From an uncultured Enterobacterales bacterium (GTDB lineage Bacteria > Pseudomonadota > Gammaproteobacteria > Enterobacterales > CALYQQ01), in assembly GCA_945288535.1 (NCBI GenBank), contig CALYQQ010000012.1, positions 1-64,000 of the forward strand: DNA of 64,000 bases, read 5' to 3'. How positions within the stretch are numbered: position 1 is the stretch's first letter; every line of letters begins with the position of its first letter. A model generated the notes under the pieces. The model made no database searches. It saw only the letters and a list, made by a program, of their open reading frames with translations, and was not told the origin of the DNA. The translations under genes were made by a program, and so were the position numbers. Of the stretch, positions 1,583 to 23,726 are shown one piece after another.

Positions 1583-1687
1583 CCATTTATAATTTTTACT
1601 CATTACTCATAAGTAAAAAATAGAAAAACACTATACTTATCGAATAATATTCACATTACACAATGATTTTACTATAAAATTTAATAT

Positions 1688-3386: not shown

Positions 3387-3439
3387 CGATCACTATTCTG
3401 CTAATACTTTAGACCGTCTATTTTACAGAGAGAATTATT

Positions 3440-4438: not shown

Positions 4439-4843
4439 ATGCTACTACGTTTATTTATCTCTTTTTTATTAATCTTATCTGTAGTTGCTTGCCAAAATAG
4501 TGAAAAAAATCAGATACCACTTAACTATCAAATTACGCAACTGTCATCATTGGTCGCAGCTACTCAATATCTACAAGAACAATGTGGTCGAAGTGATTTA
4601 CCTGATAGTCGGGAAGTGATCCAATATGCTCTTCATGCTGCAAAAAATAAAGGTTGGAATATTAGTGATTATAATAAAATAGATGAAAATGGTTTTTTAC
4701 CTATTAATCGTATAAAACAGCGCAGTAAAGATATTTATTACGATCTTATTAATGATAAAATACCAAAAAGCGAAAAATGTCAGGAGTTTAATTTATCACT
4801 AACTACTTTTCTTGATAAGATAAATACATCAAAAAGAGAGTAA
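4439..4843 (+). CDS. gspS: PulS/OutS-family pilotin lipoprotein of the type II secretion system
   Basis: Small lipoprotein, 134 aa, with a signal peptide and lipobox VVAC (lipidated C18). The mature part matches the PulS/OutS/YacC pattern: LSSLVAATQYLQEQCG, then DLP, AL..A...GW, DIYYDL, IP and KC. The two cysteines (QCG and KCQ) correspond to the conserved disulfide pair. Pilotins bind the C-terminal S region of the secretin GspD and carry it to the outer membrane. The gene lies beyond gspO and converges with it. No strong Shine-Dalgarno is visible. Function rests on pattern recall and context; the cognate role with the neighbouring gspD is inference. Confidence 0.82.
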   Translation: MLLRLFISFLLILSVVACQNSEKNQIPLNYQITQLSSLVAATQYLQEQCGRSDLPDSREVIQYALHAAKNKGWNISDYNKIDENGFLPINRIKQRSKDIYYDLINDKIPKSEKCQEFNLSLTTFLDKINTSKRE

Positions 4844-6897: not shown

Positions 6898-7387
6898 TTA
6901 TATATCCCTGAAGCAATAGACGGTTAACATTTATCATACCCGGTAGTTTATCATTGGAACTAATCTCAACTGTCGCAATATCAATACTCAATTGTTGCTC
7001 TAATTCAACAAACCAATCGAGTAATTGGCTAAATATAATTAATTCGATTTCAACTAAAACTTGTTTTCCTTGTAGTTGTAAACGCTGAATCTTAATCTGA
7101 TGTTGTTTGGCTGACTTATATATCAGCGATTCAATACTATCTGTTTGACGTTGAGTGCTTTTTCTTTCCTTTCGTAAAGTAATCAATTCTTCACTATGCT
7201 GTTGCATCCATACTAAATTTTGTTGTTGATAATTACGCTGTTGTTGAGCATGTTTAATATGTTGTTGAATAGGCTGGTAAATAGCAATCCATATAAAGAG
7301 TAAGATGACTAGAACACCTGTAACAACTAATAACTGTCTTTCACGTTGTCGACAATTTTCCCACCAATATTTTATTTGTTCTTTCAT
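6890..7387 (-). CDS. gspM: Type II secretion protein GspM
   Basis: Inner-membrane platform protein that stabilises GspL. It is 165 aa, with a short charged N-terminus containing WWENCRQRERQLL, one membrane helix (about residues 18-38), a glutamine-rich coiled stretch with many QQ pairs, and a small C-terminal ferredoxin-like domain. It overlaps gspL by 4 bases and gspN by 8, implying coupled translation. The N-terminal pattern is the typical GspM signature. Confidence 0.9.
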   Translation of the reverse strand: MKEQIKYWWENCRQRERQLLVVTGVLVILLFIWIAIYQPIQQHIKHAQQQRNYQQQNLVWMQQHSEELITLRKERKSTQRQTDSIESLIYKSAKQHQIKIQRLQLQGKQVLVEIELIIFSQLLDWFVELEQQLSIDIATVEISSNDKLPGMINVNRLLLQGYING

Positions 7388-8565
7388 TTACGCCTCCTGA
7401 TAGCAAGCGCACCCTCAATTTGTTCAGACTTTTCAATTAAATTAATTTGTTGGACATCATATTGAGCTGTTAACGCTTTACGTAATTGCTCAAAATGGTC
7501 TAGACTATTCATTCTGATTGTAAAGCGTAATTCATTTTGCTTTTTATCAAAATATAATGTCTTCATTTCAATAGGGGTAAATTGCGTTAATATAGACTGA
7601 AGTTCATTTAATAAAATAATAAAACTATTTGAATTATCTTGTTGTTTTAATTGCCTAATATGTTGTTCCATTTGCTTACGTGGATTAGTGACCCTACGTT
7701 CATCAGGAAATAATTGATGGTATAATTTAACTGTTTGCTGTTTGATATTATTAGTCTGTTGATTCAACTGATGAACATTGACTAATGTATTGGCTATAAG
7801 TAAAAATAAGCAAACAGACAAAGCTGCAATAACACTATACCAAGGACGGATAAATTTTAGCCATGATGTCTGTTGTTTATAAATTCCTGCTAGCAAATTT
7901 ACCTTATTATTAATAACATTTTTTGCCAGTAATACCATCGCGGGTTCATTAGGTTTTGCTTGCCATCCGGTGACATTAGTCGGTAATTCACTATAGCAAT
8001 AAACAACCGTTGGAATCGCATCCCCCGCTAATACTATTGGTAATAACTTTTCATCAATAGACATACCAGAATATTGCGTTTGCCTTATTAACCATTGCTG
8101 TTCTAATTTAACCGCTTGCCAAGTATCGTCTTCAACAGGAAGTGCTAAACAATCGGGCAACATTTTATAGGGTGAAATACCTGCATCTAATAATAATTTA
8201 AGCCATTGCTGAATTAAGACACGATCAATAACAGCTAAATGAAATGTATTTTGCTGACGATATAATTCTATAACATGCAGCTTATCTATATCAGAAGCGA
8301 CACGTTCCTCAATTAAAAAAGGAAGTGCTTGAATTGACTGACGTGTAACTTTTCCTGGCAATGACACAGTATGGTAAGTAATACAACTTCCTGGCACAAG
8401 AACATACACTGTACGTTGCTGACAATATTCAGTTAATTCATTAAGTTGTAACGTACTTGATAGATAACCTTCCTTTATAGAAGCTTGCTTTTCCACTGAC
8501 CATATTAACCAATGAATAGTCTCGTTTTCCATCCGTCCTAAACGGATAACCATATATTCAGTCAA
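7384..8565 (-). CDS. gspL: Type II secretion protein GspL
   Basis: Bitopic platform protein linking the cytoplasmic ATPase GspE to the membrane. The 393 aa chain has an actin-like cytoplasmic domain (about 1-240; segment VYVLVPGSCITYHTVSLPG), one membrane helix near residue 250 and a periplasmic ferredoxin-like domain. The membrane helix is followed by a glutamine-rich coiled region, as in GspM. It overlaps gspM and lies 21 bases after gspK. Confidence 0.9.
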   Translation of the reverse strand: MTEYMVIRLGRMENETIHWLIWSVEKQASIKEGYLSSTLQLNELTEYCQQRTVYVLVPGSCITYHTVSLPGKVTRQSIQALPFLIEERVASDIDKLHVIELYRQQNTFHLAVIDRVLIQQWLKLLLDAGISPYKMLPDCLALPVEDDTWQAVKLEQQWLIRQTQYSGMSIDEKLLPIVLAGDAIPTVVYCYSELPTNVTGWQAKPNEPAMVLLAKNVINNKVNLLAGIYKQQTSWLKFIRPWYSVIAALSVCLFLLIANTLVNVHQLNQQTNNIKQQTVKLYHQLFPDERRVTNPRKQMEQHIRQLKQQDNSNSFIILLNELQSILTQFTPIEMKTLYFDKKQNELRFTIRMNSLDHFEQLRKALTAQYDVQQINLIEKSEQIEGALAIRRRK

Positions 8566-8586: not shown

Positions 8587-9594
8587 TCATGAATCATCGG
8601 TATTAAATTTCCCTAGCCCATACTGACGTTCAATTACATCAATAGTTTCATTTTTTATTTTTAATAAGCTTGTAACCATATAGTGGAAATCATCAATTGT
8701 TATTCGCGTAATTAAGCGAAAATAATGACTTCGCACATCAATTACACCACCAGACGATAATTCAGACAAAATAGTATCTAATACTTTTATTTCATCTAGT
8801 TCGATAAAATCACTAACACTTTGCCATCCTTTTCTTGGACGAGAGTTAATAAGTTCAATAACATCCATTTCTGATACTTGATTAAGTAACAAAGCTTGTA
8901 GGAAAGGAGCCTGAAATTTCCTAATAGTATTGATATTAACTGATAATTTTTTTTCAGGTAATGCACAAACATAAGGTCTTAATTTCTGATAAATTTCAGC
9001 AGTAATCCCTCTTATAGCTCGTAATTCGCTAATATTTTTTAATGGTCGGTTTGCTGTAAGATAAGGCGGATCAATAGATAAATAATAGTTATCTTCAGCA
9101 CCCAATTCAGAGGGTGTATCATCTTCATCAATCCAATCTTGAATAGCAGCAACGATTTGTTTGGCTTCATATTCCTCAACATCGATATTGATTAAAAGGT
9201 GCAGTAATACTTGCTCAATATAACTATTTTGATTGTTCTCATTGCTTTCGCTAGTAATATTTTGATTTATTGCATTTATATTAAAACAGGCTTGTTCATC
9301 AAAGACGACCATTTCCAAATGAGCATCTTCTAATGGATAAACACGTCCTTCCGTTGCCCAGGTTTGGGATAAATTAATATTTTCTTCAGAGTCAAGGTAA
9401 TCCTGTAATAGTATTTCTTTGACGAGTGCTTCCCCTGAAAAAGCATACCATTTTGCTTTACGTAAGTAATGTAGTGCACTTGAGCGCTGATAAGATCGTT
9501 GCCAACGTTCATTAACACTGACAGCAATAATTGTCATTAAAGATATAATAAGTAATACAACCAATAATGCCATACCTTGTTGTCTTTTTTTCAT
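8587..9594 (-). CDS. gspK: Type II secretion minor pseudopilin GspK
   Basis: Large minor pseudopilin, 335 aa, that caps the pseudopilus with GspI and GspJ. The short leader KKRQQG is followed by MALLVVLLIISLMTIIAVSV. The position equivalent to the usual glutamate +5 is hydrophobic, which is the normal GspK trait. A large alpha-helical domain carries acidic residues including DWIDEDDTPSELGAED, which matches the calcium-site region of GspK. Overlaps gspJ by 4 bases. Confidence 0.92.
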   Translation of the reverse strand: MKKRQQGMALLVVLLIISLMTIIAVSVNERWQRSYQRSSALHYLRKAKWYAFSGEALVKEILLQDYLDSEENINLSQTWATEGRVYPLEDAHLEMVVFDEQACFNINAINQNITSESNENNQNSYIEQVLLHLLINIDVEEYEAKQIVAAIQDWIDEDDTPSELGAEDNYYLSIDPPYLTANRPLKNISELRAIRGITAEIYQKLRPYVCALPEKKLSVNINTIRKFQAPFLQALLLNQVSEMDVIELINSRPRKGWQSVSDFIELDEIKVLDTILSELSSGGVIDVRSHYFRLITRITIDDFHYMVTSLLKIKNETIDVIERQYGLGKFNTDDS

Positions 9595-10220
9595 GACTCT
9601 TCCTCAGTCAATGGCTCTGTTAAAGGTAATAGCACAAAAATGCGTTTTATTACGCCAAAATCTTCTAACTTTAAGGTAATTTCAACGCCTTGAGGTAAGT
9701 TATTTGATTTCTGCCATGTAGTTTGCCAATTATTGTTGTCGAAAAAGCGTAGTTTAAATGCTGTAACGCCTGTTAATATTTCGTTTCTAAACGGTTCTGT
9801 ACCTGGAATGGGATCGGGATAATTATAGTTCATCCGCTCTAATTGATTGTTTTTCAATCTATAGGCTAGTCTTTCTTGATCTGAACGTGGTAGTCGAGCT
9901 TCTGGATTTTGCCAACTATTACGAACAAAAGAGACACCCCAATCATCGCTTTCTAATAAATTTGGTTGTGCTGAAAACATTTGGGAAGATAAACCACTGT
10001 CATCGCGAGGTATTAGTGGTATGGCAGTATTAAAATCACGCTCAATGATAAGTAAAGCACGCTGAATTTCCGCCAATCGATCTGATTTTTTTTGTGAAAT
10101 TTCGTCTTGTAGTATGACACCTTGTAATACTTGATAAGCAGATAAGCTAAGAATAGTAAAAATCGCTATAGCAACGATTAACTCAAGCAATGTAAATCCT
10201 CGTTCTATTTTATAACTCAC
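9591..10220 (-). CDS. gspJ: Type II secretion minor pseudopilin GspJ
   Basis: Minor pseudopilin of 209 aa. The prepilin cleavage motif is ERG followed by FTLLELIVAIAIF, with the required glutamate at +5. The globular part shows the family stretch AEIQRALLIIERDFNTAIPL. It overlaps gspI upstream and gspK downstream by 4 bases each, so the tip complex subunits are translationally coupled. GspO would process it. Confidence 0.93.
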   Translation of the reverse strand: MSYKIERGFTLLELIVAIAIFTILSLSAYQVLQGVILQDEISQKKSDRLAEIQRALLIIERDFNTAIPLIPRDDSGLSSQMFSAQPNLLESDDWGVSFVRNSWQNPEARLPRSDQERLAYRLKNNQLERMNYNYPDPIPGTEPFRNEILTGVTAFKLRFFDNNNWQTTWQKSNNLPQGVEITLKLEDFGVIKRIFVLLPLTEPLTEEES

Positions 10221-10582
10221 TGTTTCACCACATAGGTCCGTAAGCTTGAACTAATTGCAGTATAATCAGGGTTAGTATAGACCTCAATATCAATTGCTTT
10301 TAACGTATCTAAATCTGTAACAACACCACGCCAACGCCAGTACCACTTTTGTCCGGCCATTTCTGATTCACCTTTTATCCAGCTATCATTTGGCCAACGT
10401 TGCTCTAATAACAGTAATGCCAACTGATTATCAGCAACCCATTCTGCAATCATTTTCTCTTGTAAAAAGCCAAGGCCAACTGTTTGTTGACCTGTAGATT
10501 TCATAACTGCCAGAGCAGCAATTGAAAATATGACTAATGCGACTAAGACTTCTAACAGTGTCATTCCTTGGATCCGCTGCAT
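10217..10582 (-). CDS. gspI: Type II secretion minor pseudopilin GspI
   Basis: Minor pseudopilin of 121 aa that nucleates pseudopilus assembly. Cleavage motif QG followed by MTLLEVLVALVIFSIAAL has the glutamate at +5. The segment AEWVADNQLALLLLEQRWPN is characteristic of GspI. Its start shares one base with the gspH stop, and its end overlaps gspJ by 4 bases. Confidence 0.92.
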   Translation of the reverse strand: MQRIQGMTLLEVLVALVIFSIAALAVMKSTGQQTVGLGFLQEKMIAEWVADNQLALLLLEQRWPNDSWIKGESEMAGQKWYWRWRGVVTDLDTLKAIDIEVYTNPDYTAISSSLRTYVVKQ

Positions 10583-11172
10583 TACATTTCCTTATCCAAA
10601 TCAATTAGCTTGATATTTCCTAATGCATCCCCTGTGATCTGGAATTCTATTGCTGATTGTTTCTCTGTTGCTTTTTTTAATAAAGTAATTTTAAAAGACG
10701 TTATTTCACCACTAGGATATAACCAAATCAGAGGAGTCAGCTCAACATCCCTTTTATCATCATAACTGTATAAGTCTACTGGCATACCTTGTATATTTAA
10801 CATCAAACGAAATGATGGTGATAAGTGCCGTTGAAGGGGTAAACGGCGATATAACCAAGGTTGCCATTGATACGATGCTTTGATAGCAAAATAATCATCC
10901 AATAACGAGGTTGATCTAGCTTGTTTTTCTATGGATCGTAATGTAACAATTTGCCAACCATCCGTATTAATGATAACCCCCATCATTCGCCCTTCAATTA
11001 ATGCACGATCTGCTGCTAATCTAATAGCTTCTTTTAATGTTTCTGCTTGATCCATCGCATTATTGTTACGCTCTGAAGGCATTGTCATCGTAACCATCAC
11101 AGCAATAAGCCCCATAATGGCAATAACAACCATAATTTCCAGCAAAGTAAATCCTTGCTGTCGAAATCTCAT
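10582..11172 (-). CDS. gspH: Type II secretion minor pseudopilin GspH
   Basis: Minor pseudopilin of 196 aa. Prepilin motif QQG followed by FTLLEIMVVIAIMG is intact. The C-terminal domain is a beta-rich fold like other GspH/FimT proteins. It overlaps gspG and gspI by one base each. It is processed by GspO and probably joins the top of the pseudopilus. Confidence 0.91.
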   Translation of the reverse strand: MRFRQQGFTLLEIMVVIAIMGLIAVMVTMTMPSERNNNAMDQAETLKEAIRLAADRALIEGRMMGVIINTDGWQIVTLRSIEKQARSTSLLDDYFAIKASYQWQPWLYRRLPLQRHLSPSFRLMLNIQGMPVDLYSYDDKRDVELTPLIWLYPSGEITSFKITLLKKATEKQSAIEFQITGDALGNIKLIDLDKEM

Positions 11173-11618
11173 TAGTTATTTCCTGCAGGGTTATCATTTA
11201 GATTCCAATTACCGATATCATCGTCAGTACCATCTTCACCGTCTGGACCATATGAATAGATATCGATTTTGCCATGACTACCCGGACTTAATAATTGGTA
11301 TTCATTACCCCAAGGATCTTTAGGCAAACGTTTTATATAGCCACCATCGCGATAATTACGTGGTTCAGGTGCAGATGTTGGTTTCGATACTAAAGCTATC
11401 AAACCTTGCTCTGTCGTCGGATATCGATTATTATCAAGACGATACATATCTAGCATATTTTCTAAAGCAACAATATCACTTATTGCTTTTTGTCTATTAG
11501 CAATATCCCTATTTCCCATAAGATTAGGAACAACTAAAACGGCTAATATACCGAGAATAACAATTACAACCATAACCTCTAATAAGGTAAAACCTGACTG
11601 ATGATGTCTTTTTTGCAT
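11172..11618 (-). CDS. gspG: Type II secretion major pseudopilin GspG
   Basis: Main subunit of the pseudopilus, 148 aa. The leader ends QSG before FTLLEVMVVIVILG, with E at +5. The globular domain shows LENMLDMYRLDNNRYPTTEQ, the LPKDPWGNEY motif and a C-terminal aspartate-rich calcium loop DGEDGTDDDIGNW. These are hallmark features. The next gene upstream, gspF, is 53 bases away, the largest gap in the C-N part of the cluster, and could allow extra expression of this abundant subunit. Confidence 0.95.
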   Translation of the reverse strand: MQKRHHQSGFTLLEVMVVIVILGILAVLVVPNLMGNRDIANRQKAISDIVALENMLDMYRLDNNRYPTTEQGLIALVSKPTSAPEPRNYRDGGYIKRLPKDPWGNEYQLLSPGSHGKIDIYSYGPDGEDGTDDDIGNWNLNDNPAGNN

Positions 11619-11671: not shown

Positions 11672-12892
11672 TTAAAAAGATGCCATATTATTTAACTGCA
11701 ACAATGGTTGCAAAATAGACAAAACAATGAATAATACTACCGATGCCATAGTGACTATTAATGCTGGTTCAAAAATACTTAATGCTATAGAAACTTGAGT
11801 AGAAAATTCACGATCCTGATTATCAGCAGCTCGACTGAGCATATCATTCAACGTTCCGCTTCGTTCCCCTGATGCAACCATATGTAGCATCATAGCTGGG
11901 AATAGTCCTGTATTACTAAGTGACATATTTAAACTAGCACCTTCTTTTACTCTATCGGCTGCCAATATTAGTTGTTGACGCGCATAAGTGTTAGTTAATA
12001 CTTCACAACTAATTTGCATTGCACGTAGTAAAGGCACTGCACTACTATTTAAAATACTAAGTGTTCTTGCATAACGTGCAGTATTTTGTCCTCGACTAAC
12101 ACGGCCAATAACAGGTAAAGATAATAGTTGTTTATGCCACTTTAGTTGCCATTTGGGTTTTTTTAATAATCGAAAAAGAAAAAGAAATCCGACAATAAAC
12201 GAAAATAATAAATAAGGTCCAACTTCTCGGGTAAAATCACTAAGATGAATTAATATTCTTGTCGATAATGGCAAGGTTTGTTTCATATGAATAAACTGTT
12301 CAATAATTTTAGGTACAACGGCTGTTAACAAAATGGCAATAACTGCTATTGCTATAAAAGTAAGAACACAAGGATAGATTAATGCTTGTAAGGTTTTTAC
12401 ACGCATCGCTTGCCGTTGTTCAGTATAATCAGCCAATCTTTCTAAAACGACTCCCAGATATCCTGAAGCCTCACCTGCGGCAATCATTGCTCGATATAGC
12501 TGATTAAATACTTGAGGGAATTCAGCCATAGCATCCGCTAATGTATGCCCTTCCAAAACTTTATTACGTACAGCTGTAATTAATGAAGCAATTTGTGGTT
12601 TTTCCGATTGTTGAGAAACTGCCTTTAGCGCTTCTTCTATCGGAAGTGCTGCTGAAACTAATGTTGAAAGTTGACGTGTTAATAACGTTAGCTCATTAAT
12701 ACTAATACGCCAACGAAACAACGCAAACCCTTGCCTATTTTTTTTAAACTGAGCCGTAGCTTCCTGAACACTTATAACATTTAAGCCTTGTTCTCTAATA
12801 AGCTGACGTGCCTGACGCGCTGAATCGGCTTCTAACACACCTTTTAATTGTTTACCTTGTAAATCAATTGCTTGATATTGAAAAACTGCCAT
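11672..12892 (-). CDS. gspF: Type II secretion inner-membrane platform protein GspF
   Basis: Polytopic core of the inner-membrane platform, 406 aa. It has two homologous T2SSF helical domains (about 70-195 and 270-395) and three membrane helices. The N-terminus MAVFQYQAIDLQGKQLKGVL and the motifs YPCVLTF and GERSGTL are typical. Only 3 bases separate it from gspE, its ATPase partner. Confidence 0.94.
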   Translation of the reverse strand: MAVFQYQAIDLQGKQLKGVLEADSARQARQLIREQGLNVISVQEATAQFKKNRQGFALFRWRISINELTLLTRQLSTLVSAALPIEEALKAVSQQSEKPQIASLITAVRNKVLEGHTLADAMAEFPQVFNQLYRAMIAAGEASGYLGVVLERLADYTEQRQAMRVKTLQALIYPCVLTFIAIAVIAILLTAVVPKIIEQFIHMKQTLPLSTRILIHLSDFTREVGPYLLFSFIVGFLFLFRLLKKPKWQLKWHKQLLSLPVIGRVSRGQNTARYARTLSILNSSAVPLLRAMQISCEVLTNTYARQQLILAADRVKEGASLNMSLSNTGLFPAMMLHMVASGERSGTLNDMLSRAADNQDREFSTQVSIALSIFEPALIVTMASVVLFIVLSILQPLLQLNNMASF

Positions 12893-12895
12893 AAA

Positions 12896-14368
12896 TTATC
12901 CGTTCCTGGTAACTCTAAGAACCTCTTCTAATGTCGTCACACCTGATAAAACTTTACTAAATCCGTCTTGTTGAATCGAAGGGGTATAACTACGAATTAA
13001 GGCTTCAATTTCCATTTCGCTTTCACCGCGATGAATAGCCTGGCGAACAGTATTATCAACAATAAGGAGTTCATGAATACCCGTACGCCCTCGATAACCG
13101 GTATAATTACAATGTTCACATCCTTTGGCTCGCCAAACAGGACTATTTTTTGGAAGGTCGACATCATTAGCTTCAGATTCAGTAAGTTGAGATACTTCTT
13201 TACATTCTGAACATAAAACACGGACTAAACGTTGAGATAACACTCCTAATAACGAAGTTGATAATAAAAATGGCTCGACTTGCATATCTTGTAATCGGGT
13301 AACTGCGCCTATAGCTGTATTAGTATGTAAAGTTGATAAGACCAAATGTCCTGTCAATGAAGCCTGAACCGCTATTTGTGCCGTTTCTGTATCACGAATT
13401 TCCCCAATCATTACTACATCAGGATCTTGACGCAAAATGGCACGTAAGCCTCTTGAAAATGTCATATCAACTTTATTATTGACTTGTGTCTGCCCAACAC
13501 CTTCTAGATCATATTCAATAGGATCTTCTACCGTCAAAATATTACGGCTTTCACTATTTATTTGAGTAAGTGCAGCATATAAAGTTGTACTTTTTCCAGA
13601 TCCTGTTGGTCCAGTTACCAATAAAATGCCATGAGGTGAGTTAATTAGTTGGCTTAACAGTTGTCGATTTTTCTTTGTCATGCCTAATTGTTTTAACTCA
13701 AGACGTGCATTATTTTTATCTAACAAGCGCATAACGACACGTTCACCATGATTAGCCGGCATCGTTGATACCCGAACATCAACTGAACGACCACCAATGC
13801 GCAAAGCAATCCGTCCATCTTGAGGTATTCGCTTCTCTGCAATATCCATTTTCGACATAACTTTTATACGCGATATTAATAATGGCGCCAATTTGCGTTG
13901 AGGTCTTAATATTTCACGTAATACGCCATCAACGCGTAAACGTATTGTCATATAACGTTCAAATGTTTCAATATGAATATCTGACGCTTCCATTTTAATG
14001 GCTTCGCTTAATAACGCATTAATCATACGAATTATTGGCGCATCATCATCACTGTTTAGTAAATCTTCACTATCAGGGAGTTCTTCGGCCAATGTATAAA
14101 GATCCATTTCATTACCAATATTTTCCATCATTTGACGAGCTTTAGATGAATCTTGTTGATAACATGTAACTAAACATTGCTCAAACTTTTCCTTCGTTAC
14201 TGATTCTGTAATAAAATCACAGCCTACTGCACGTTGAACTTCAAGTAAAATTGACGGGCTAATTGAATCTATATATAGCAAACGCATAGACTCAGCCTGT
14301 TGTAATAAGATTACGCCATACTGACGTGCAAATGTAAAAGGTAATTGGATAGTATTAATCTCGCTCAT
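12896..14368 (-). CDS. gspE: Type II secretion ATPase GspE
   Basis: Hexameric cytoplasmic ATPase that powers pseudopilus extension, 490 aa. Walker A is GPTGSGKST (253-261). The Asp box and Walker B region [14 protein letters not shown] spans 313-326. The His box lies in [12 protein letters not shown]. The zinc site has four cysteines, C386, C389, C417 and C420. The N-terminal domain binds GspL. It follows gspD by 9 bases. All catalytic features are intact, so the machine looks functional. Confidence 0.96.
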
Positions 14369-14377
14369 AGCTTAACT

Positions 14378-16342
14378 CTAGCGTATCGAGTTGCCATTGA
14401 AATCATCAATTGCACTTTTTACTGTAGAAAATGACCATTTATTTCTCTTATATTCAGGTATAATTAATGATTCTGAACGTGGATAATCCCAATGGCTCTT
14501 TGCATTTTCACGTATCTGTTGTTCTTCTCGAAATTGGTCATAAAGTTGCTTAGATGTAGTGGTATACTCATTTTGTTCTTTTAAAATTGTTGGCCGAATA
14601 AATACCATCAGATTTCTTTTAGTTTTTGTTATTTTTTTCGATCTGAATAAATAGCCAAGCATTGGAATATCGCCTAAGATGGGAACCTTACTAACAGTTT
14701 CTTTATCTGCCGTATCAAGAAGTCCGCCAATAACAACTGTTTCACCACTATTAACAAGTACCGCATTATTAACATTACGTGTATTAAATGTTGCACCAAG
14801 TGAATTATTCGAATCACCAACACTTGAAACTTCTTGTTCAATTTCCAATAATACAGATTTATCCGCATTAATTTGTGGTGTAACCTTTAGCTTAATCCCT
14901 ACTGATTTTCGTTCAATAGTACGATAAATATTATCACTTGATGTGCTGGTTCGATCGCCTGTAATAACAGGAACTTCTTGCCCTACACTAAAAGTCGCTT
15001 CTTTGTTATCTAACGTAACAATACTGGGCGTTGCTAAAATGTCATTTTTGCTATTACTAGATAATGCAGTAAGTAATGATCGCCAATTACCAGAAAAAAT
15101 CCCTGCAACAACCCCAGAATAATTCGCAAGAGAGGCATCGCCTTTTTGTGTTGATGTCCATCCTTCCTTATCTACGGTAGAAATAGGTATTGTCGTATCT
15201 GGAAATTGAGTCACTCCTCCCGATTTATTCCCCCATTGAATACCAAGATTTATACCATCTGCATCATAAATTTCAGCAATAATAGCTTCGACTCTTACTT
15301 GTGAACGTCGAATATCTAGATTTGTAATAATGTCTTCTAGCTCACGCATTAAATCGGGCGGCGCATTAATAATTAAGGCATTAGTTTGTTCATCTGCTTT
15401 TATTGTCACATTTTTCATTAATGCAGCAGCAGACTCGCCATTCTTATTAGAAGTGCCATTATCATTTTGTAAACCAGGCGTCAATCCAGTCAAGATATTC
15501 ATTAAATTTTCAGCTTTTGCATGTTTTAAATAGATAACTTTAGTATTACCTTGAGAGTCTTGTTTTACATCTAATTTTTTTAGCATGGCGATAACATATA
15601 ATCGTGATTTTCTATCGCCATTTATCATGACTGAGTTTGTCCGTTCATCGGCGGCTAATTTCGGTAATTTTATGCCAGAAGCTTTACCATCTTCTTTTAG
15701 CATTATGGTAACTAATTTAACAACTTCGCTTGCTGCTGCATATTCCAGTTTATATGATTCAACATGTCGATCTCCCGCTTGATCGACTTTCTGAATAATT
15801 CGTAATAGGCGATTTACAACCGCTGCGCGTCCTGTAAGTAAAATAACGTTCGACGGTTCATAATGTGCTACATTACCACTACCTGCATTATCAATAAGTT
15901 GTCTTAACAAAGGGGCTAATTCTCTAGCAGTGACATTTTGTAGCGGAACTACGCGTGTCACAATTTCATCACCAAGGCCTGGATCATTTTCGTCAGCAAC
16001 TTTTGCCGCTGACGTCTTAGCATCCTTCGCCCGAATAACTTTTAATACACCACTGTCCATTGTGATCACGGCGTACCCATAAACGTCAAGCACACTTAGA
16101 AAGAATTGATAATACTCATCATCAGTTAATGGATCGTAACTACGAACGTTAATTGTTCCACGAATAGAAGGATCGATAATTATAGTTTTATTTAATGCTT
16201 TACTCACTGTATTAACAAACTCGTTAATATCAGTTCCTTTAAAATTTGCTGTAAACTCCGCACTATTAGCAAAATTGCTAATTGCTAGTAGAGAAATAAA
16301 CCAAACAGCATGCCATATCCCCTTGGCTTGTTTTATCATCAA
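14378..16342 (-). CDS. gspD: Type II secretion outer-membrane secretin GspD
   Basis: Forms the outer-membrane channel. The 654 aa protein has a signal peptide (cleavage near NSAEFTANF, about residue 28), N0-N3 periplasmic domains (about 30-320), and a secretin domain with VPVITGDRTS and the motif GGLLDTADKETVSKVPILGD. The tail beyond about residue 590 is the S region that a PulS/OutS pilotin would bind. It abuts gspC with no gap. A pilotin gene is encoded at the other end of the cluster. Confidence 0.96.
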   Translation of the reverse strand: MMIKQAKGIWHAVWFISLLAISNFANSAEFTANFKGTDINEFVNTVSKALNKTIIIDPSIRGTINVRSYDPLTDDEYYQFFLSVLDVYGYAVITMDSGVLKVIRAKDAKTSAAKVADENDPGLGDEIVTRVVPLQNVTARELAPLLRQLIDNAGSGNVAHYEPSNVILLTGRAAVVNRLLRIIQKVDQAGDRHVESYKLEYAAASEVVKLVTIMLKEDGKASGIKLPKLAADERTNSVMINGDRKSRLYVIAMLKKLDVKQDSQGNTKVIYLKHAKAENLMNILTGLTPGLQNDNGTSNKNGESAAALMKNVTIKADEQTNALIINAPPDLMRELEDIITNLDIRRSQVRVEAIIAEIYDADGINLGIQWGNKSGGVTQFPDTTIPISTVDKEGWTSTQKGDASLANYSGVVAGIFSGNWRSLLTALSSNSKNDILATPSIVTLDNKEATFSVGQEVPVITGDRTSTSSDNIYRTIERKSVGIKLKVTPQINADKSVLLEIEQEVSSVGDSNNSLGATFNTRNVNNAVLVNSGETVVIGGLLDTADKETVSKVPILGDIPMLGYLFRSKKITKTKRNLMVFIRPTILKEQNEYTTTSKQLYDQFREEQQIRENAKSHWDYPRSESLIIPEYKRNKWSFSTVKSAIDDFNGNSIR

Positions 16343-17251
16343 CTATTCCTCATCCAACATAATTTGAATTTCTTGTAATTCACCATCCCTGACGATGGTT
16401 ATACTAACTGATGTTAATGTCACAAGATCACGCATAATTTTTTGCGCTTCTTCTTCATTTCGTAAATCGTAACCGTTAATAGCAATAGCCAGATCATTGT
16501 TTTTTAAACCCACTTGGTTAAATAGCGATGGATCACGACCTGGATTTAATCGATAACCTGTAAGCTTTTTATTAGCGACTACCGGCGAGGCCGATATATA
16601 ATTAAATAAGTTATCTGTTTCATTTTTCGTGACAACTTTACTTGGAACCTTAGATTGTGCCTTTTTATTAGTTGCAGGGGAATTGACACCACGCTTTTGC
16701 GTATTGAATTCCCCTTTCTCACCAAAAGGAATAACTTCCATATGTCCCTGACGTTTGACAATCACGCGATCATGCAAAATATACGCAATTTTTACACCAG
16801 CAAGAGTATCACCTACACTATAACTGGTTTGCTGGTTATTTATATTAAAAATAGCTAATGCTAATTCTTGCTTATCACTAGATACGATCCCCATAAGGTG
16901 AGCATTAATATTTGCAAGAGGTAATGAATCATAGATATCTAGATCACCATCTTTATCATCACTATCAATTACAGTATTAGAAAATTTCGGTTCTGGTCCA
17001 AATAGCATCATTTTTTTTATAGTATTAAATGTATAAGTCTCACTTTTTATTGATTGAGAAAAATTAGAACGATTAACTGAAAAAGGTTGGGTTATATTAC
17101 TCTTTGCAGAGGAGCTAAATGAAATCAGAGACCAACTAAGCTGGGCAAGTTGTTGACAACAAACAATAGCTATTATAATTGTTAAGTATTTCGCTAATTT
17201 TGTTTGTGGTAACACCTCTAGCCAGCGATATAATCGGTTAAGAGGAGCCAT
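16343..17251 (-). CDS. gspC: Type II secretion protein GspC
   Basis: Bitopic inner-membrane protein linking the platform to the secretin; it is also implicated in substrate choice. The 302 aa protein has a membrane helix (about 22-44), an HR domain (about 95-180, LPLANINAHLMGIVSSDKQ) that contacts GspD N0, a linker, and a C-terminal PDZ domain (about 215-300) with GYRLNPGRDPSLFNQVGLKN. It is first in the gspC-N operon and divergent from the GH3 lipoprotein gene. Confidence 0.93.
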   Translation of the reverse strand: MAPLNRLYRWLEVLPQTKLAKYLTIIIAIVCCQQLAQLSWSLISFSSSAKSNITQPFSVNRSNFSQSIKSETYTFNTIKKMMLFGPEPKFSNTVIDSDDKDGDLDIYDSLPLANINAHLMGIVSSDKQELALAIFNINNQQTSYSVGDTLAGVKIAYILHDRVIVKRQGHMEVIPFGEKGEFNTQKRGVNSPATNKKAQSKVPSKVVTKNETDNLFNYISASPVVANKKLTGYRLNPGRDPSLFNQVGLKNNDLAIAINGYDLRNEEEAQKIMRDLVTLTSVSITIVRDGELQEIQIMLDEE

Positions 17252-17970
17252 CCTTACCTTACCATTCTTATTATTAATAAAGATTGTTATATTAAAATAA
17301 TTAATTAATTTTTAAAACTAAAAATATTATTCTGTATTTTTCTTAAAACATTTTACAATAAATAATATGATTGTAACAACCTATAAATACTGTATAAAAT
17401 AAGTTTATTTATAATTATAGTAAAATTTATTATTTATTAATGTATCAAGTTAAAAAATCAACTATTATTTTCTTAAAAAAGAAATTTTATAGTTATATTT
17501 TCTTTAGTTAAGTAACTTATTTATTACTTTTAAAAATTTAAAATATAAATATAATTTATAATAACTTATTAAACATGTTACTTACTAAAAACAAATAAAT
17601 AGTATTTATTTAAAATGAAATATATGATATTTATATATAATTACATTATTTAATATTGTTTATAACAAAATTATTTATTTTGATGAATAAGATACGTTAA
17701 TTTAAAAAAAACACACTCATTTAGTGTAAAAAAGAAGGATGATATAGTTAAATACTATGTTATAGTAATTTATGAACAAGAGATGTTTAGAATGTTTTAT
17801 TTATATATTTTTCAGGCGAGAAAAACCATTTCAAGGATAGAAACGGCGATTGATCTCTATCTTTGCAGGAATAACCTGTAATTATGCTAATAGTAATAAG
17901 TCACTACTTAATCTATCGTTATAGGTTAATTCTTATAGGTTCATAAATCATAAAAACAAGGAGTGTATAA
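17252..17970. promoter_or_regulatory. AT-rich divergent region between gspC and the GH3 gene
   Basis: This 719-base stretch has no credible gene and is extremely A/T-rich, visibly more so than the flanking genes. It must hold the promoters of the gsp operon (minus) and of the GH3 gene (plus). I could not fix promoter boxes, since near-matches to -10 elements occur throughout. Such composition is typical of H-NS-silenced promoters (inference). Confidence 0.5.
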
Positions 17971-20262
17971 ATGATCGATGCATCATTACGTACCCGTTTA
18001 ACTATAGTCAGCCTAATTGTTTTAGCTATTACCTCGTGTAAATGTGGTGATAAACATAAACCTAACAAACCAACCAATCCCGAAAAACCACCAATAGGAC
18101 CAATAATAAAAGATGCATGTACAGAATCATTTAGTACTATTGTAGTAAATGGTATTACCTATCGAGATCTTAATCGGAATGGTAAACTGGACGTCTATGA
18201 GAATTATAAATTACCTATATCTGAACGTGTTCAGTATTTAATTGATCATATGACGATCGAAGAAAAAGCAGGTTTAATGTTACATCCAACAATGCCTCTT
18301 ACGAGTGATGGTCGTGTTGATAAAGAGCAAGTGAAAAAACTTATTATAGATAATCACATTTCAGCATTCCTTACTACACAATCGGGTGCTGATCCCCAAA
18401 AAATGGCAGAAGACAATAATAATGTTCAAGCGTTAGCTAGCTATAGCCGTTGGGGAATTCCTATCAGCATTAGTACAAACCCTCGGAATCATATTATTTC
18501 GCGTCCTCTATATGATTTTAGCTTAGAACCTGGTGCATTTACTGCCTGGCCTGGAACACTTGGTTTTGCTGCTATGGGATTACAGTCAGATCGACAATTA
18601 AGTTATTTCAATCAAGAAGCCAAGGTTAGAAGCAATAAAAGTAATAAAAACAATAATAGAAGCAAAGTAAAACAAGCAAAAGCAGTAAAGAATAATACAT
18701 CTATTATAGAGGAATTTTCTGAGATTGTGCGTAAAGAATATCGTGCTGTAGGTATTCATATTTCGTTTGCGCCACAAGCTGATATTGCTAGCGAACCTCG
18801 TTGGGGACGTATTTCCGGAACATTTGGAGAACATCCTGATGTCGTTACGGACATGACGGGAGCTTATATTGAAGGCTTACAAAATAATAAAAATGGTAAT
18901 GGCTTAAATCGTGAGAGTGTTATCGCAGTATTAAAACATTTTCCTGGCGCAGGTCCACAAAGCCAAGGTATAGACTCCGCCAATGCATTTAATAAAGAGC
19001 AAATTTATCCATATTTTGGATTTGATATACATCTACAACCTTTTGCTAAAAATCTGAAAAAGGCAAGTAAAACGCCTTTAGCTGTTATGCCTTACTATGG
19101 CGTACCAGACTTAGCATTCCATACGCAAGCTGATGGCAATGTTATAGATATTCCGGGTGAGGCGTTCCATTATAATAAGACTGTTCTTCAAACTATTTTA
19201 AGAAACGAATATGCTTTTAATGGTGTGATTATAAGCGATTGGGGTATTCTTGATAATTGTGATGGTGCTTGTGCAGAAGGATTAAGCGATAAAGAACTCG
19301 CTAATAATGTTTCTGCAAATAAGCTACCTTTCGGTATGCCATGGACTATGGAATTAGAATCGGTAAGAGCTAGAATTATCAAAGCTGTGAATGCGGGAGT
19401 TGACCAATTTGGTGGTTTAAGTGATCCATCAGAGCTCATTGCTGCAATTCAATCAGGTGAAATTACAATGTCACGGCTCAATGAGGCAGCAAGAAGGATC
19501 TTGACACAAAAAATGCAACTTGAGCTATTTGAAAGTGTCTGTGTTTCGACGAAGCCACAGGATATTGATAACGTATTCAAAAATCAAACTAATATCGCAA
19601 AAGCAAAACAAGCTCAACGTAAATCACAAGTCTTACTAAGAAATGCTAATGGTATTCTACCTGTTACTGATTTAGATTCAAAAAGAGTATTTGTTTACGG
19701 CGTAAAAGATGTAAATAAATTGGAACGTAAATATGGTTTCACTGCTATTACGAATATTGCTGATATAAATAATGCAGATATGGCTATTATTCGAATTAAT
19801 ACGCCTTATGAAATGACGTCACGATTCCCCTTTGGTCAAATACCCTTTGGTCAATTAGCCTTGTTGTCACCAGAAGAGCTTGACGGTAATAATCATCGCC
19901 CTATTTCATCTGAATCTGGCGCGATAGAATACACTACCGAATACAAAGGCTCTGATGATTATGCAATTATCAAACAAGCTCAACAAGCAGGAATACCGAT
20001 TGTTCTATCTATTTATATGGATAGGCCAATGATTATTACTGAATTAGCACAAGACAATAATATTATTATTCTAGCCAACTTTGGTGCAGAAGATGACGCT
20101 GTCTTCGATATTATTAATGGTAAAAGCAAAGCGGCGGGAAGATTACCGTTTGATTTACCTATATCCTGGAACTACGTATTAATACAAGACAGTGACAAAC
20201 CGTTTGATAGTGCTGTACCAAGTAGTGAATTTGTATATGGTACAGGTATATTACTACCGTAA
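17971..20262 (+). CDS. Glycoside hydrolase family 3 lipoprotein, beta-glucosidase-like
   Basis: Predicted exported lipoprotein of 763 aa. The signal peptide ends ITSC (lipidated C23); K24 at +2 does not retain it in the inner membrane. Residues 66-77 form an EF-hand-like loop, DLNRNGKLDVYE, as in many GH3 beta-glucosidases. The GH3 N-domain has KHFPG (322-326) and the nucleophile segment ISDWG with D423; a C-terminal domain follows, with GAEDDAVFDIINGKSKAAGRLPFDLP (about 705-730). Residues 218-243 are an Asn/Lys-rich insertion unlike the rest. AAGGAG precedes the start. Its position, divergent from gspC, mimics pulA in Klebsiella, so it is a good candidate T2SS substrate. Substrate specificity cannot be read from the sequence. 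Confidence 0.85.
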   Translation: MIDASLRTRLTIVSLIVLAITSCKCGDKHKPNKPTNPEKPPIGPIIKDACTESFSTIVVNGITYRDLNRNGKLDVYENYKLPISERVQYLIDHMTIEEKAGLMLHPTMPLTSDGRVDKEQVKKLIIDNHISAFLTTQSGADPQKMAEDNNNVQALASYSRWGIPISISTNPRNHIISRPLYDFSLEPGAFTAWPGTLGFAAMGLQSDRQLSYFNQEAKVRSNKSNKNNNRSKVKQAKAVKNNTSIIEEFSEIVRKEYRAVGIHISFAPQADIASEPRWGRISGTFGEHPDVVTDMTGAYIEGLQNNKNGNGLNRESVIAVLKHFPGAGPQSQGIDSANAFNKEQIYPYFGFDIHLQPFAKNLKKASKTPLAVMPYYGVPDLAFHTQADGNVIDIPGEAFHYNKTVLQTILRNEYAFNGVIISDWGILDNCDGACAEGLSDKELANNVSANKLPFGMPWTMELESVRARIIKAVNAGVDQFGGLSDPSELIAAIQSGEITMSRLNEAARRILTQKMQLELFESVCVSTKPQDIDNVFKNQTNIAKAKQAQRKSQVLLRNANGILPVTDLDSKRVFVYGVKDVNKLERKYGFTAITNIADINNADMAIIRINTPYEMTSRFPFGQIPFGQLALLSPEELDGNNHRPISSESGAIEYTTEYKGSDDYAIIKQAQQAGIPIVLSIYMDRPMIITELAQDNNIIILANFGAEDDAVFDIINGKSKAAGRLPFDLPISWNYVLIQDSDKPFDSAVPSSEFVYGTGILLP

Positions 20263-20296: not shown

Positions 20297-20330
20297 ATAA
20301 AGTAAGATGATGTATATCGTCTTACTTTAT
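20297..20330 (+). terminator. Terminator after the GH3 gene
   Basis: ATAAAGTAAGATGA (20297-20310) pairs with TCGTCTTACTTTAT (20317-20330) around a 6-base loop, giving 14 pairs with one G-T. TGTTTATT follows. It lies 34 bases after the GH3 stop and would isolate that gene from rcsF. Confidence 0.72.
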
Positions 20331-20408
20331 TGTTTATTCATTAAAATGAATAGACTATTTTATTTGGTCATAGAGGTATTATTAAGAAAAATAGGGACAA
20401 AATATAAC

Positions 20409-20777
20409 ATGAATGACAAAGCTATTTTTGCTTCACTAATAATTATATTTTCTTTATTGTCAGGCGGTTGTACTATAAATAAAAAACAAAATAAACATGC
20501 ATTTCACTCTATTAATATTTACCAAAGTAAAGATGAATTAGTCAATCTGTCCTATCATAAATTAGGATCAATTTCAGGTAGTAGTTGCCAATTAATTCAA
20601 CAAGATCGTCCTGTCACAATTAATGATGCACGTAATGATTTAAGAGCTAGGGCATCTCGAAGCCAAGGTAATGCCGTTTTACTTAATCATTGTGATATTA
20701 TGTCGTCTTCTTTAGGTTGTTACCGACTTGCTATATGTGAAGGAACATTATTACAAGTAAATATTAATGCATTTTAA
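20409..20777 (+). CDS. rcsF: Outer-membrane lipoprotein RcsF, sensor of the Rcs envelope-stress system
   Basis: RcsF signals lipopolysaccharide and envelope damage to the Rcs phosphorelay through IgaA, in part while lodged in BamA complexes. I chose the ATG at 20409 (122 aa): it gives a proper lipoprotein signal with lipobox SGGC, while the upstream ATG at 20307 lies within the GH3 terminator hairpin. Four cysteines follow in the family pattern (SSC, HC, GC, IC), which form the two disulfides of RcsF. Sequence identity to E. coli is moderate, but NDARNDLRARASRSQGNAVLL and CYRLAIC match. It is followed by trmO, as in E. coli. Confidence 0.88.
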   Translation: MNDKAIFASLIIIFSLLSGGCTINKKQNKHAFHSINIYQSKDELVNLSYHKLGSISGSSCQLIQQDRPVTINDARNDLRARASRSQGNAVLLNHCDIMSSSLGCYRLAICEGTLLQVNINAF

Positions 20778-20974
20778 AAAACAGAAAATTATTGATTAGC
20801 CGATAGCAATGCTAAAAAAGAATGAATATATTAAGCTTAATGGTAATTAATATAACGATCGCATATGATAAAAGTTATATTAATAGTAGGATAACTGATG
20901 CCTATACTAATAAATGATAATTAATTATGCTACAATCATACTGTATTAGTTACATATCATAAAAATAGTTTATA

Positions 20975-21682
20975 ATGCAATCAATTACATTTTCACCAAT
21001 CGGTATTATTCATTCACCCTATAAAGAAAAATTTGCTATTCCAAGGCAACCCGGCTTGGTTGATGATGGTGGAGGTGAGTTACATTTAATACCCTCTATA
21101 AAGCAATTAGATTGTGTGAGAGAACTGCATCAATTTAGCCATATATGGCTTATTTTTGTTTTTCATCAAGTCATTGAGCAAGGTTGGCATCCTACAGTAA
21201 GACCGCCCAGATTAGGGGGAAATAAACGAATTGGTGTATTTGCCAGCCGTTCTCCTTTTCGTCCTAACCCAATTGGCATGTCGCTAGTTGAATTAAAGGC
21301 GATCCGTCAGCAAGGCGATAATATTATTTTACAATTGGGAAGCCTGGACCTTGTTGATGGCACCCCTGTTCTTGATATAAAACCCTATTTACCCTTTGCA
21401 GAAGCATTACCTAATGCTGTAGCTGGATATGCTCAATGTGCTCCCCAAACAACACTAAACGTATTTTTTAGTCTAGAGGCAGAACAACATCTCATTCAAT
21501 ACAATAACAAATATCCCTTTTTACGCCGTTTTATTTACCAACTTATGCTTCAGGATCCGCGCCCTGCCTATCATAGGCAATCAAAAAAAAGACGAGAGTA
21601 TGCTGTGCATTTGTTAGAATTTAATATACGCTGGCATACTGATGGTGATCTTGTCACTGTTCTTGCTATTGAACCGAAATAA
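20975..21682 (+). CDS. trmO: tRNA (adenine(37)-N6)-methyltransferase
   Basis: TrmO (formerly TsaA/YaeB) methylates N6 of t6A37 in certain threonine tRNAs using S-adenosylmethionine. The 235 aa protein has the beta-barrel TsaA domain: SPIGIIHSPYKEKFAIPRQP, FSHIWLIFVFHQ, and FASRSPFRPNPIGMS, the family signature. A C-terminal domain ending RREYAVHLLEFNIRW follows. The order rcsF-trmO-proS is the enterobacterial one. Confidence 0.94.
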   Translation: MQSITFSPIGIIHSPYKEKFAIPRQPGLVDDGGGELHLIPSIKQLDCVRELHQFSHIWLIFVFHQVIEQGWHPTVRPPRLGGNKRIGVFASRSPFRPNPIGMSLVELKAIRQQGDNIILQLGSLDLVDGTPVLDIKPYLPFAEALPNAVAGYAQCAPQTTLNVFFSLEAEQHLIQYNNKYPFLRRFIYQLMLQDPRPAYHRQSKKRREYAVHLLEFNIRWHTDGDLVTVLAIEPK

Positions 21683-21718
21683 AAGCATAAATAACAGATA
21701 GAATGTATTACAGCTATT

Positions 21719-21752
21719 AAAAATAGCCAAATAATAATAGCGCTATTTTTTT
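21719..21752 (+). terminator. Terminator after trmO
   Basis: AAAAATAGC (21719-21727) pairs with GCTATTTTT (21742-21750), and two further T residues continue the T-run. It lies 36 bases after the trmO stop. Confidence 0.65.
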
Positions 21753-22007
21753 ATATTACTTAGTTACAGAAAAAGTAATAGCATCTACACTACATTGTCC
21801 TTTACAATTCAATATACTTTTTTATCCTTGTTTCGCCTGCCATATTTCATTTCATTTATCACAATAATACGCTATCTTATATAACCATTAGTTAGGGCTA
21901 TACTTAATACACGATTATTTAAGTTTTTAACAATAATATCCGTTTTGTAACAATATAATGAGCATATTAGAAATTGATCTAATTGCTTTAATGGAATTCG
22001 AAAAAAC
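21753..22007. other. Spacer upstream of proS
   Basis: Together with the trmO terminator, this makes a 325-base gap. No gene is visible. It should hold the proS promoter, but no clear -35/-10 pair stands out against the AT-rich background. Confidence 0.4.
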
Positions 22008-23726
22008 ATGCGAACAACACAATACTTGTTATCTACCTTAAAAGAAACCCCTGCTGATGCAGAAGTCATCAGTCACCAGCTAATGTTACGAGCAGGCATG
22101 ATCCGAAAACTGGCATCAGGTCTCTATACTTGGCTACCAACCGGTTTACGTGTACTAAATAAAGTTGCAAGTATTATCCGGCAAGAAATGAATAATGCTG
22201 GCGCAATAGAAATTTCTATGCCTGTAGTTCAACCTGCCGAACTTTGGCAAGAAAGCGGTCGTTGGGAGCAATATGGTCCTGAATTATTACGCTTTGTTGA
22301 TCGTGGAGACCGTCCTTTTGTTTTGGGCCCCACTCATGAAGAAGTTATGACTGATTTAATTCGTCATGAAATTAATTCTTATAAACAATTACCACTTAAT
22401 TTTTATCAAATCCAAACAAAATTTCGTGATGAAGTTCGTCCTCGCTTTGGTGTAATGCGTGCTCGCGAATTTGTTATGAAAGATGCTTATTCATTTCATA
22501 CGTCTCAAGCGTCATTACAACAAACTTATGACGATATGTATACTGCTTACAGTAATAGTTTTAGCCGTATGGGACTTGATTTCCGTGCGGTACAGGCCGA
22601 TACCGGATCTATTGGTGGTAATCATTCTCATGAATTTCAGGTATTAGCATCAAACGGTGAAGACGATATTGTCTTTTCTACCGATTCAGATTATGCAGCA
22701 AATATTGAGATGGCTGAAGCAATAGCGCCAGAGGTATCCAGACCTGCACCTACAGCTCAAATGACGTTAGTGGATACACCTAATGCAAAAACTATTATGA
22801 CATTAGTTGAACAATTTAATTTACCTATTCATAAAACGGTTAAAACATTATTGGTTCATGCAAATGAAAAAAGCGGTCATAAATTAGTAGCATTATTAGT
22901 ACGCGGTGATCATCAACTTAATGAAATTAAAGCAGAAAAACATCCTCTTGTTGCCTCACCTTTAGTTTTCGCGAGTGAAGATGAGATCCGTTTAATTGTT
23001 GGCGCTGGTCCCGGTTCATTAGGTCCGGTTAATCTTCCCATCCCTATTATCATTGATAGAAGTGTTGCTGTTATGAGTGATTTCGTCGCTGGCGCAAATA
23101 TTGATGGTAAACATTATTTTTCTATTAATTGGTTACGTGATCTACCATTACCTGATGTTTTTGATTTACGTAATGTCGTGGAAGGTGATCCTAGTCCAGA
23201 TGGTAAGGGAACCTTATTAATTAAACGGGGTATTGAAGTTGGTCATATTTTTCAACTTGGCACTAAATACTCAGAAGCAATGAAAGCAACTGTACAAGGT
23301 GAAGATGGTCGCAATATGACAATGTTAATGGGATGCTATGGTATTGGTGTTTCTCGCATTGTCGCTGCTGCTATTGAACAAAACCATGATGATAGAGGTA
23401 TTATTTGGCCTGATACTATCGCACCTTTTAGTGTTGTCATTGTCCCCATGAATATGCATAAATCATATCGTGTTCAGCATGCTGCCGAAGAACTCTATAA
23501 CGCCTTACGCGCTGAAGGCATTGACGTTTTGTTTGATGATCGTAAAGAAAGGCCAGGTGTAATGTTTGCGGATATGGAGCTTATTGGTATTCCACATATG
23601 CTTATCATAGGTGATCGTAATCTCGATAATAACGAAATTGAATATAAATCACGTAAAACAGGTGAAAAGCAATTAGTCAAAGTGGCCGATATACTGTCAT
23701 TTTTAAAAAGTCTGATCAATAAATAA
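22008..23726 (+). CDS. proS: Prolyl-tRNA synthetase
   Basis: Charges tRNA-Pro in the cytoplasm; 572 aa, the same size as the bacterial-type E. coli enzyme. Class II motifs are present: motif 2 with [19 protein letters not shown] and motif 3 with GCYGIGVSR. The editing (INS) domain that clears mischarged alanine lies at about 240-390. The start [20 protein letters not shown] matches E. coli ProS. No defects are seen. A hairpin follows the stop. Confidence 0.97.

What the first reader, a model, noticed from the sequence alone, without database searches (positions are those of the whole stretch)
16343..20262. GH3 lipoprotein divergent from gspC as the likely dedicated T2SS substrate
In Klebsiella the lipoprotein pullulanase PulA is encoded divergently from pulC and is carried to the cell surface by the Pul system. 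Here a different glycosidase family (GH3) with a lipobox and no inner-membrane retention signal sits in the same place. This suggests swapping of the cargo enzyme while the layout stays. I know of no described T2SS-dedicated GH3 lipoprotein, but could not search.
Basis: partly seen in the sequence, partly recalled or inferred. Interest (0 to 1): 0.78.

Follow-up and report, generated by a model that had tools for sequence, protein, structure and literature searches.

The report
GH3 lipoprotein paired with secretion system
A sugar-cleaving enzyme carrying a lipid-anchor signal is encoded beside a complete bacterial protein-export machine, and the same pairing recurs in other bacteria at other chromosomal sites, so it is probably the machine's cargo for the cell surface, although its own sorting signal is atypical and no experiment has shown export.

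Summary
In detail: gspC (16343-17251, -) and a GH3 lipoprotein gene (17971-20262, +) are divergent, beside a complete T2SS (gspC-O plus a PulS-type pilotin). The whole block (4439-20262) sits between metQ and rcsF, which are adjacent in eight relatives checked. Five other genomes (three genera) carry a GH3 lipoprotein divergent from gspC, again with gspS at the far end, at several chromosomal sites. Other clusters hold different lipoproteins in or beside that position: PulA, GH28+PL1, GHL10 and a second GH3 type. So 'cargo swap, layout kept' is supported. The window also has gspN, recently shown to be needed for T2SS export of lipoproteins; in 35 clusters, gspN tracks a linked lipoprotein gene. 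The window protein reads C-K-C-G-D and fails that motif, the strongest evidence against. Best reading: a T2SS-exported surface GH3 lipoprotein (about 0.66); main rival: a periplasm-facing outer-membrane lipoprotein. 'Dedicated', surface location and substrate remain untested.

The parts
17971..20262 (+). GH3 lipoprotein gene, 763 aa; candidate T2SS cargo
   Evidence: Pfam PF00933 2.8e-35, PF01915 1.6e-9; PDB relatives 9ul7 5.5e-69, SN243 1.7e-59; in lipoprotein part of tree
17971..18060 (+). signal peptide, lipobox I-T-S-C (Cys23 codon 18037-18039) and sorting residues P1'-P8' CKCGDKHK
   Evidence: read; motif comparison
18586..18705 (+). 40-residue Lys/Asn-rich insertion (about residues 206-245), absent from the aligned relatives shown
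   Evidence: alignment
19237..19239 (+). catalytic nucleophile Asp423 (SDW motif), invariant
   Evidence: aligned with nucleophile region of SN243
17252..17970 (.). intergenic region between gspC and GH3, 719 bp, about 22% GC; no promoter-like signal above shuffled expectation
16343..17251 (-). gspC
   Evidence: TIGR01713 3.7e-51
14378..16342 (-). gspD secretin
   Evidence: Pfam Secretin 5.3e-52, N0 domain
12896..14368 (-). gspE ATPase
   Evidence: Pfam T2SSE 3.1e-156
11672..12892 (-). gspF
   Evidence: Pfam T2SSF
11172..11618 (-). gspG major pseudopilin
   Evidence: Pfam T2SSG
9591..11172 (-). gspJ, gspI, gspH minor pseudopilins (9591-10220, 10217-10582, 10582-11172)
   Evidence: position, prepilin-type N-termini and blastp matches in relatives
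8587..9594 (-). gspK
   Evidence: Pfam T2SSK
7384..8565 (-). gspL
   Evidence: Pfam T2SSL
6890..7387 (-). gspM
   Evidence: Pfam T2SSM
6160..6897 (-). gspN, the component reported as required for lipoprotein cargo
   Evidence: Pfam T2SSN 5.2e-25; PMC12802150
4973..5842 (-). gspO prepilin peptidase
   Evidence: Pfam A24
4439..4843 (+). gspS pilotin lipoprotein
   Evidence: Pfam T2SS_PulS_OutS 3.3e-24
893..4258 (.). left flank: gmhB, metN, metI, metQ (core synteny)
20307..23726 (+). right flank: rcsF, trmO, proS (core synteny; rcsF start probably near 20409)

Best explanation
The block 4439-20262 is one acquired module: a Pul/Out-type T2SS with its pilotin and a GH3 exo-glycosidase lipoprotein as a cluster-linked cargo. 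The GH3 protein is exported by Sec, lipidated on Cys23 and cut by signal peptidase II (inferred from the lipobox), then handed with the help of GspN to the T2SS and passed through GspD, to sit on the outer face of the outer membrane and cleave oligosaccharides near the cell. Shown: gene content, lipobox, layout, block insertion, recurrence in other genera, place in the GH3 tree. Inferred: lipidation, T2SS dependence, surface location, substrate.
For: Block insertion: metQ and rcsF are adjacent in eight relatives (G017, G009, G034, G126, G198, G296, G342, G248) where the window has the 16-kb block. Recurrence: GH3 lipoprotein divergent from gspC, 287-396 bp away, in G665, G617, G450, G407 and G535, each with the pilotin gene at the gspO end, at several chromosomal sites. 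Same position used for other lipoprotein cargo, including PulA. GH3 tree: lipoprotein forms separate from secreted non-lipid forms (non-lipid clade 100/100), the window falls with the lipoproteins, its own paralog with the others. All genomes found with the lipoprotein form have gspC; the non-lipid form is common where gspC is absent. gspN present; of 35 clusters read, 24 of 24 with gspN carry a linked lipoprotein gene (one degraded), 1 of 11 without. GspN requirement for PulA and InvL: PMC12802150. Catalytic Asp423 and KH, EPRWGR motifs intact.
Against: P1'-P8' is CKCGDKHK: no Asp/Asn at +2, not Asn/Asp- or Gly/Ser-rich, three Lys; every linked relative tabulated reads CD, CND, CSD or CTD. 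That motif was required for T2SS export of InvL and its absence correctly predicted a non-substrate. The window GH3 is on a long branch (1.7) with 95 of 116 near-invariant positions kept and His337 replaced by Ala. No expression or localisation data. The gspN correlation rests on few independent events.
Confidence: 0.66

Rival explanations
1. The GH3 protein is an ordinary outer-membrane lipoprotein facing the periplasm, sorted by the Lol pathway; it was once T2SS cargo, but its sorting signal has drifted and the adjacency is a relic.
For: Lys at +2 and no Asn/Asp or Gly/Ser enrichment; [quoted passage not shown] fast evolution of the window protein.
Against: gspN and the full T2SS are kept; the lipobox and catalytic residues are kept; sorting rules vary between species, and CKVE is a listed inner-membrane retention signal in P. 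aeruginosa (PMC2996285), so Lys+2 is not decisive.
Confidence: 0.2
2. As for Caulobacter ElpS, the lipoprotein next to a T2SS reaches the surface without it, and the T2SS only affects its release.
For: [quoted passage not shown]
Against: No Slam, Bam or other surface-lipoprotein route is indicated here (not searched); close relatives carry PulA-like N-termini.
Confidence: 0.07
3. The T2SS mainly exports other, unlinked proteins, and GH3 is a passenger next to it.
For: Out-type systems export unlinked soluble enzymes (general knowledge); the genome's secreted proteins were not surveyed.
Against: Recurrent divergent GH3-gspC pairing in other genera and replacement by other lipoproteins at that place; only small or transport-type lipoproteins with the motif were found elsewhere in the genome, by a non-exhaustive pattern scan.
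Confidence: 0.07

Closest known systems
Klebsiella Pul system with pullulanase PulA (GH13 lipoprotein)
   Same: Complete T2SS with PulS-type pilotin and GspN; a carbohydrate-active lipoprotein encoded divergently from gspC (seen here in G296, G674, G526, G640, G702, G569)
   Different: GH3 instead of GH13; pilotin gene at the gspO end rather than on the pulA side; Lys instead of Asp at +2; T2SS branches outside the PulA clade
GH3-lipoprotein-linked T2SS clusters of G407, G535, G617, G450, G665 (found here)
   Same: Same GH3 subfamily (41-44% identity), same divergent layout, pilotin at the far end, gspN present
   Different: Asp+2 kept in all five; different chromosomal sites; their T2SS proteins form a clade separate from the window's
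Acinetobacter InvL and other GspN-dependent T2SS lipoproteins (PMC12802150)
   Same: T2SS with gspN and lipobox-bearing candidate cargo
   Different: InvL is an adhesin; sorting motif GGG or ND(N/D) is absent in the window protein
Caulobacter ElpS (PMC2996285)
   Same: Lipoprotein gene next to a T2SS, no known inner-membrane retention signal
   Different: Found surface-exposed without the T2SS; homology to the GH3 protein was not tested
Secreted non-lipid GH3 relatives (own paralog at G000:C4, f27 genomes that look Orbaceae-like)
   Same: Same GH3 subfamily, 34-38% identity
   Different: Ordinary signal peptide, separate clade, common in genomes without gspC

Membership tests
Glycoside hydrolase family 3 | GH3 N- and C-terminal domains with catalytic Asp nucleophile | tested here: met
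   Pfam above cut-off; Asp423 invariant
Glycoside hydrolase family 3 | glycosidase activity and substrate | not testable with these tools
   needs purified enzyme; His337 to Ala change may alter specificity
Type II secretion system, Pul/Out type | gspC to gspM plus prepilin peptidase and pilotin | tested here: met
   tree places it as sister of the Pul/Out clade, 99.3/99
Bacterial lipoprotein | signal peptide with lipobox [LVI][ASTVI][GAS]C | tested here: met
   ITSC at residues 20-23; by motif only
T2SS-dependent surface lipoprotein (PulA/InvL kind) | sorting motif after Cys: Asp+2, or ND(N/D) / GGG, Asn/Asp- or Gly/Ser-rich | tested here: not met
   CKCGDKHK against CD/CND/CSD/CTD in relatives
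T2SS-dependent surface lipoprotein (PulA/InvL kind) | GspN encoded by the system | tested here: met
   PF01203 5.2e-25
T2SS-dependent surface lipoprotein (PulA/InvL kind) | gene linked to a gsp cluster, in a conserved pairing (supporting feature, not strictly defining) | tested here: met
T2SS-dependent surface lipoprotein (PulA/InvL kind) | surface exposure lost without GspD or GspN | not testable with these tools
   experiment needed

The most novel reading that the evidence does not exclude
The GH3 lipoprotein was the ancestral cargo divergent from gspC in the Pul/Out T2SS clade, later replaced in place by PulA, pectinases, GHL10 or a PAP2 lipoprotein; and the window protein is still exported although it lacks the known sorting motif, so T2SS lipoprotein recognition is looser than reported.
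Probability: 0.25. Interest if true: 0.7.

Novelty: new variant of a known kind. Interest (0 to 1): 0.55.

Why it matters
Few T2SS lipoprotein cargoes are known, and PulA is the classic linked one. A cluster family in which one slot beside gspC holds different lipoprotein enzymes gives a way to predict T2SS cargo from gene order, supports the recent GspN result with independent comparative data, and offers a natural test (Lys+2 in place of Asp+2) of what signal sends a lipoprotein to the T2SS rather than to Lol.

Tried and rejected
Chance adjacency: rejected by recurrence. GH3 as part of the flanking core genes: rejected, metQ and rcsF are adjacent in relatives. Lipidation on Cys25 (CGDK, which would resemble the motif): rejected because Lys at -1 does not fit a lipobox. 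Pseudogene: no stop or frameshift, catalytic motifs intact, though diverged. Close relatives in GTDB contigs, phages and plasmids: only 22-40% hits. No other genome of the same family is held, so conservation within the family could not be checked. Repeats or tRNA signs of a mobile island: none convincing. Promoter scan of the intergenic region: at shuffled level. The Fisher value for the gspN link (6e-8) overstates it, because related genomes are counted separately.

Full report
Observation. gspC is 16343-17251 on the minus strand (TIGR01713, 3.7e-51) and the GH3 gene is 17971-20262 on the plus strand. They are divergent across 719 bp of about 22% GC DNA. The GH3 product starts MIDASLRTRLTIVSLIVLAITSC|KCGDKHKP: a signal peptide with a lipobox. 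Downstream of gspC lie D, E, F, G, H, I, J, K, L, M, N and O, and beyond O, on the plus strand, a PulS/OutS pilotin gene. The system is complete and includes gspN.

One inserted block. The flanks are core enterobacterial synteny: gmhB-metN-metI-metQ on the left and rcsF-trmO-proS on the right. In eight relatives (G017, G009, G034, G126, G198, G296, G342, G248) metQ and rcsF are adjacent. The window therefore carries gspS, gspO-C and GH3 together as one block of about 16 kb between metQ and rcsF. This makes GH3 part of the module by position. The window's genome is the only one of its family held; its DnaE is 81% identical to that of an Enterobacteriaceae-like family (f18), 80% to f10 and 76% to f27. 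I do not name the organism; a Thorselliaceae-like position is a guess.

Survey for the same pairing. I searched 343 genomes of the Enterobacteriaceae-like family for gspC and read the neighbourhood of most hits. Five genomes of three genera (G665; G617, G407, G535; G450) have a GH3 lipoprotein gene divergent from gspC at 287-396 bp, and the pilotin gene at the gspO end, as in the window. Their clusters lie at different places, for example beside pckA/hslO-like genes in G617, G407 and G535 and elsewhere in G450 and G665.

Other cargo in the same slot. In G296, G674, G526, G640, G702 and G569 the gene divergent from gspC is pullulanase PulA (Pfam for five of them; G569 by its matching start and length). 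In G126, G198, G673, G411, G618, G538, G493 and G484 lipoprotein genes of the GH28 type, often with a PL1 lipoprotein gene, lie upstream of gspC on the same strand (Pfam on representatives). G025 has a GHL10 lipoprotein divergent from gspC. G306 and G140 have a BglX-type GH3 lipoprotein upstream of gspC (Pfam on G306), a separate recruitment of the GH3 fold. G466 has a PAP2-domain lipoprotein at the gspO end. So lipoprotein cargo genes are exchanged around a conserved T2SS.

GspN. Roberts, Gura and Sandkvist (PMC12802150) report that GspN is required for T2SS transport of lipoproteins, including PulA, and not of soluble proteins. In the 35 clusters of f18, f26 and the window read at both ends, all 24 with gspN carry a linked lipoprotein gene (one, in G683, is degraded), while of 11 without gspN only the SslE-type cluster does. 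In G589 the GH28 gene has lost the lipobox Cys (LLAGSGDV against LLAGCTDS in G493, same genus, 84% identity) and gspN is absent. These are few independent events: on the T2SS tree the gspN-less Out-type clusters form one clade and G589 is a second event. In other families gspN occurs without a linked lipoprotein gene (G129, G033, G109, G275, G163), so gspN alone does not predict linkage.

GH3 tree. The subfamily divides into lipoproteins and secreted non-lipid forms; the non-lipid clade has support 100/100 (G681 is only cut short at a contig edge, and the f11 lipoproteins branch lower). The window protein joins the lipoproteins of Aeromonas-type and enterobacterial genomes (89/82, with a long branch of 1.7), while the second relative in its own genome (G000:C4, 648 aa, ordinary signal peptide) joins the non-lipid clade. 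Every genome found with a lipoprotein form has gspC; the f27 genomes with the non-lipid form, and G228 and G276, do not. In three genomes of g100, which have PulA next to gspC, a GH3 lipoprotein related to the linked ones lies elsewhere in the genome, so linkage is not obligatory.

The argument that fails. [quoted passage not shown] T2SS lipoproteins of Acinetobacter carry ND(N/D) or GGG after the Cys, such a motif was required for InvL, and its absence predicted a non-substrate. The linked relatives read CDNS, CDND, CDDG, CDNN, CSDS, CTDS or CNDD; the window reads CKCGDKHK. This is the main reason for keeping confidence moderate. Sorting rules differ between species, and CKVE is listed as a retention signal in P. 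aeruginosa (PMC2996285), so Lys+2 does not settle it. Caulobacter ElpS, a gsp-adjacent lipoprotein without a retention signal that reaches the surface without the T2SS, is a fair warning.

Enzyme. The nucleophile Asp423 and the KH and EPRWGR motifs are kept. Of 116 positions nearly invariant in the family 95 are kept; His337 is Ala, and a 40-residue Lys/Asn-rich insertion (206-245) is seen in no relative shown. The nearest solved structures by sequence are 9ul7 and SN243, both matching over the GH3 domains. Substrate is not predicted beyond glycosides of the GH3 kind, which is inference from the family.

T2SS tree and order of events. On six concatenated Gsp proteins the window's system is sister (99.3/99) to a clade holding both the GH3/GHL10-linked clusters and the PulA/GH28/PAP2/Out clusters. 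GH3 on both sides of this split would fit GH3 as the ancestral cargo, replaced later; two separate acquisitions of the same lipoprotein family fit as well. The GH3 tree does not decide, since the window branch is long.

Verdict. Observation confirmed; interpretation partly supported. The pairing is real, recurrent and modular; T2SS export of the GH3 lipoprotein is the best explanation but is unproven and contradicted by one tested feature. It works like, and by layout belongs with, Pul-type T2SS with linked lipoprotein cargo; strict membership among T2SS-dependent surface lipoproteins is withheld because the sorting motif was tested and not met. It is a new variant of a known kind.

Noticed in passing
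L132:6928-8904 and L210 (G589) versus L125:6933-8909 and L204 (G493): Natural experiment: in one genus a gspC-adjacent GH28 lipoprotein lost its lipobox Cys in the genome that also lacks gspN.
   Followed up: yes
L138:6524-8974, L140:6512-8962 (G306, G140): A BglX-type GH3 lipoprotein (CNDDDDDD) directly upstream of gspC on the same strand, an independent GH3 recruitment.
   Followed up: partly
L207:12916-14892 (G466): PAP2-domain lipoprotein with a passenger-associated repeat (PATR) match, between gspO and gspB/gspS-like genes; possible cargo at the other end of the cluster.
   Followed up: partly
L152:1528-9228 (G025): GHL10 lipoprotein divergent from gspC, followed by a second GHL10 protein without a lipobox and an inverse-autotransporter (invasin-like) gene.
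   Followed up: partly
L071:5226-7172 (G000:C4): Second GH3 of the same subfamily in the window's genome with an ordinary signal peptide, between unrelated genes and an amino-acid ABC transporter.
   Followed up: yes
window 17260-17800: Extremely AT-rich stretch between gspC and GH3, about twice as long as in the other linked clusters, with no detectable gene or promoter signal above shuffles.
   Followed up: partly
L070 (NZ_AP026896.1): The Aeromonas caviae record labelled plasmid pKAM479_3 is 4.94 Mb and is evidently a chromosome.
   Followed up: no
window 18979-18981 (residue 337): His, nearly invariant in the GH3 subfamily (D-x-H-N motif), is Ala in the window protein; possible change of specificity.
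   Followed up: partly
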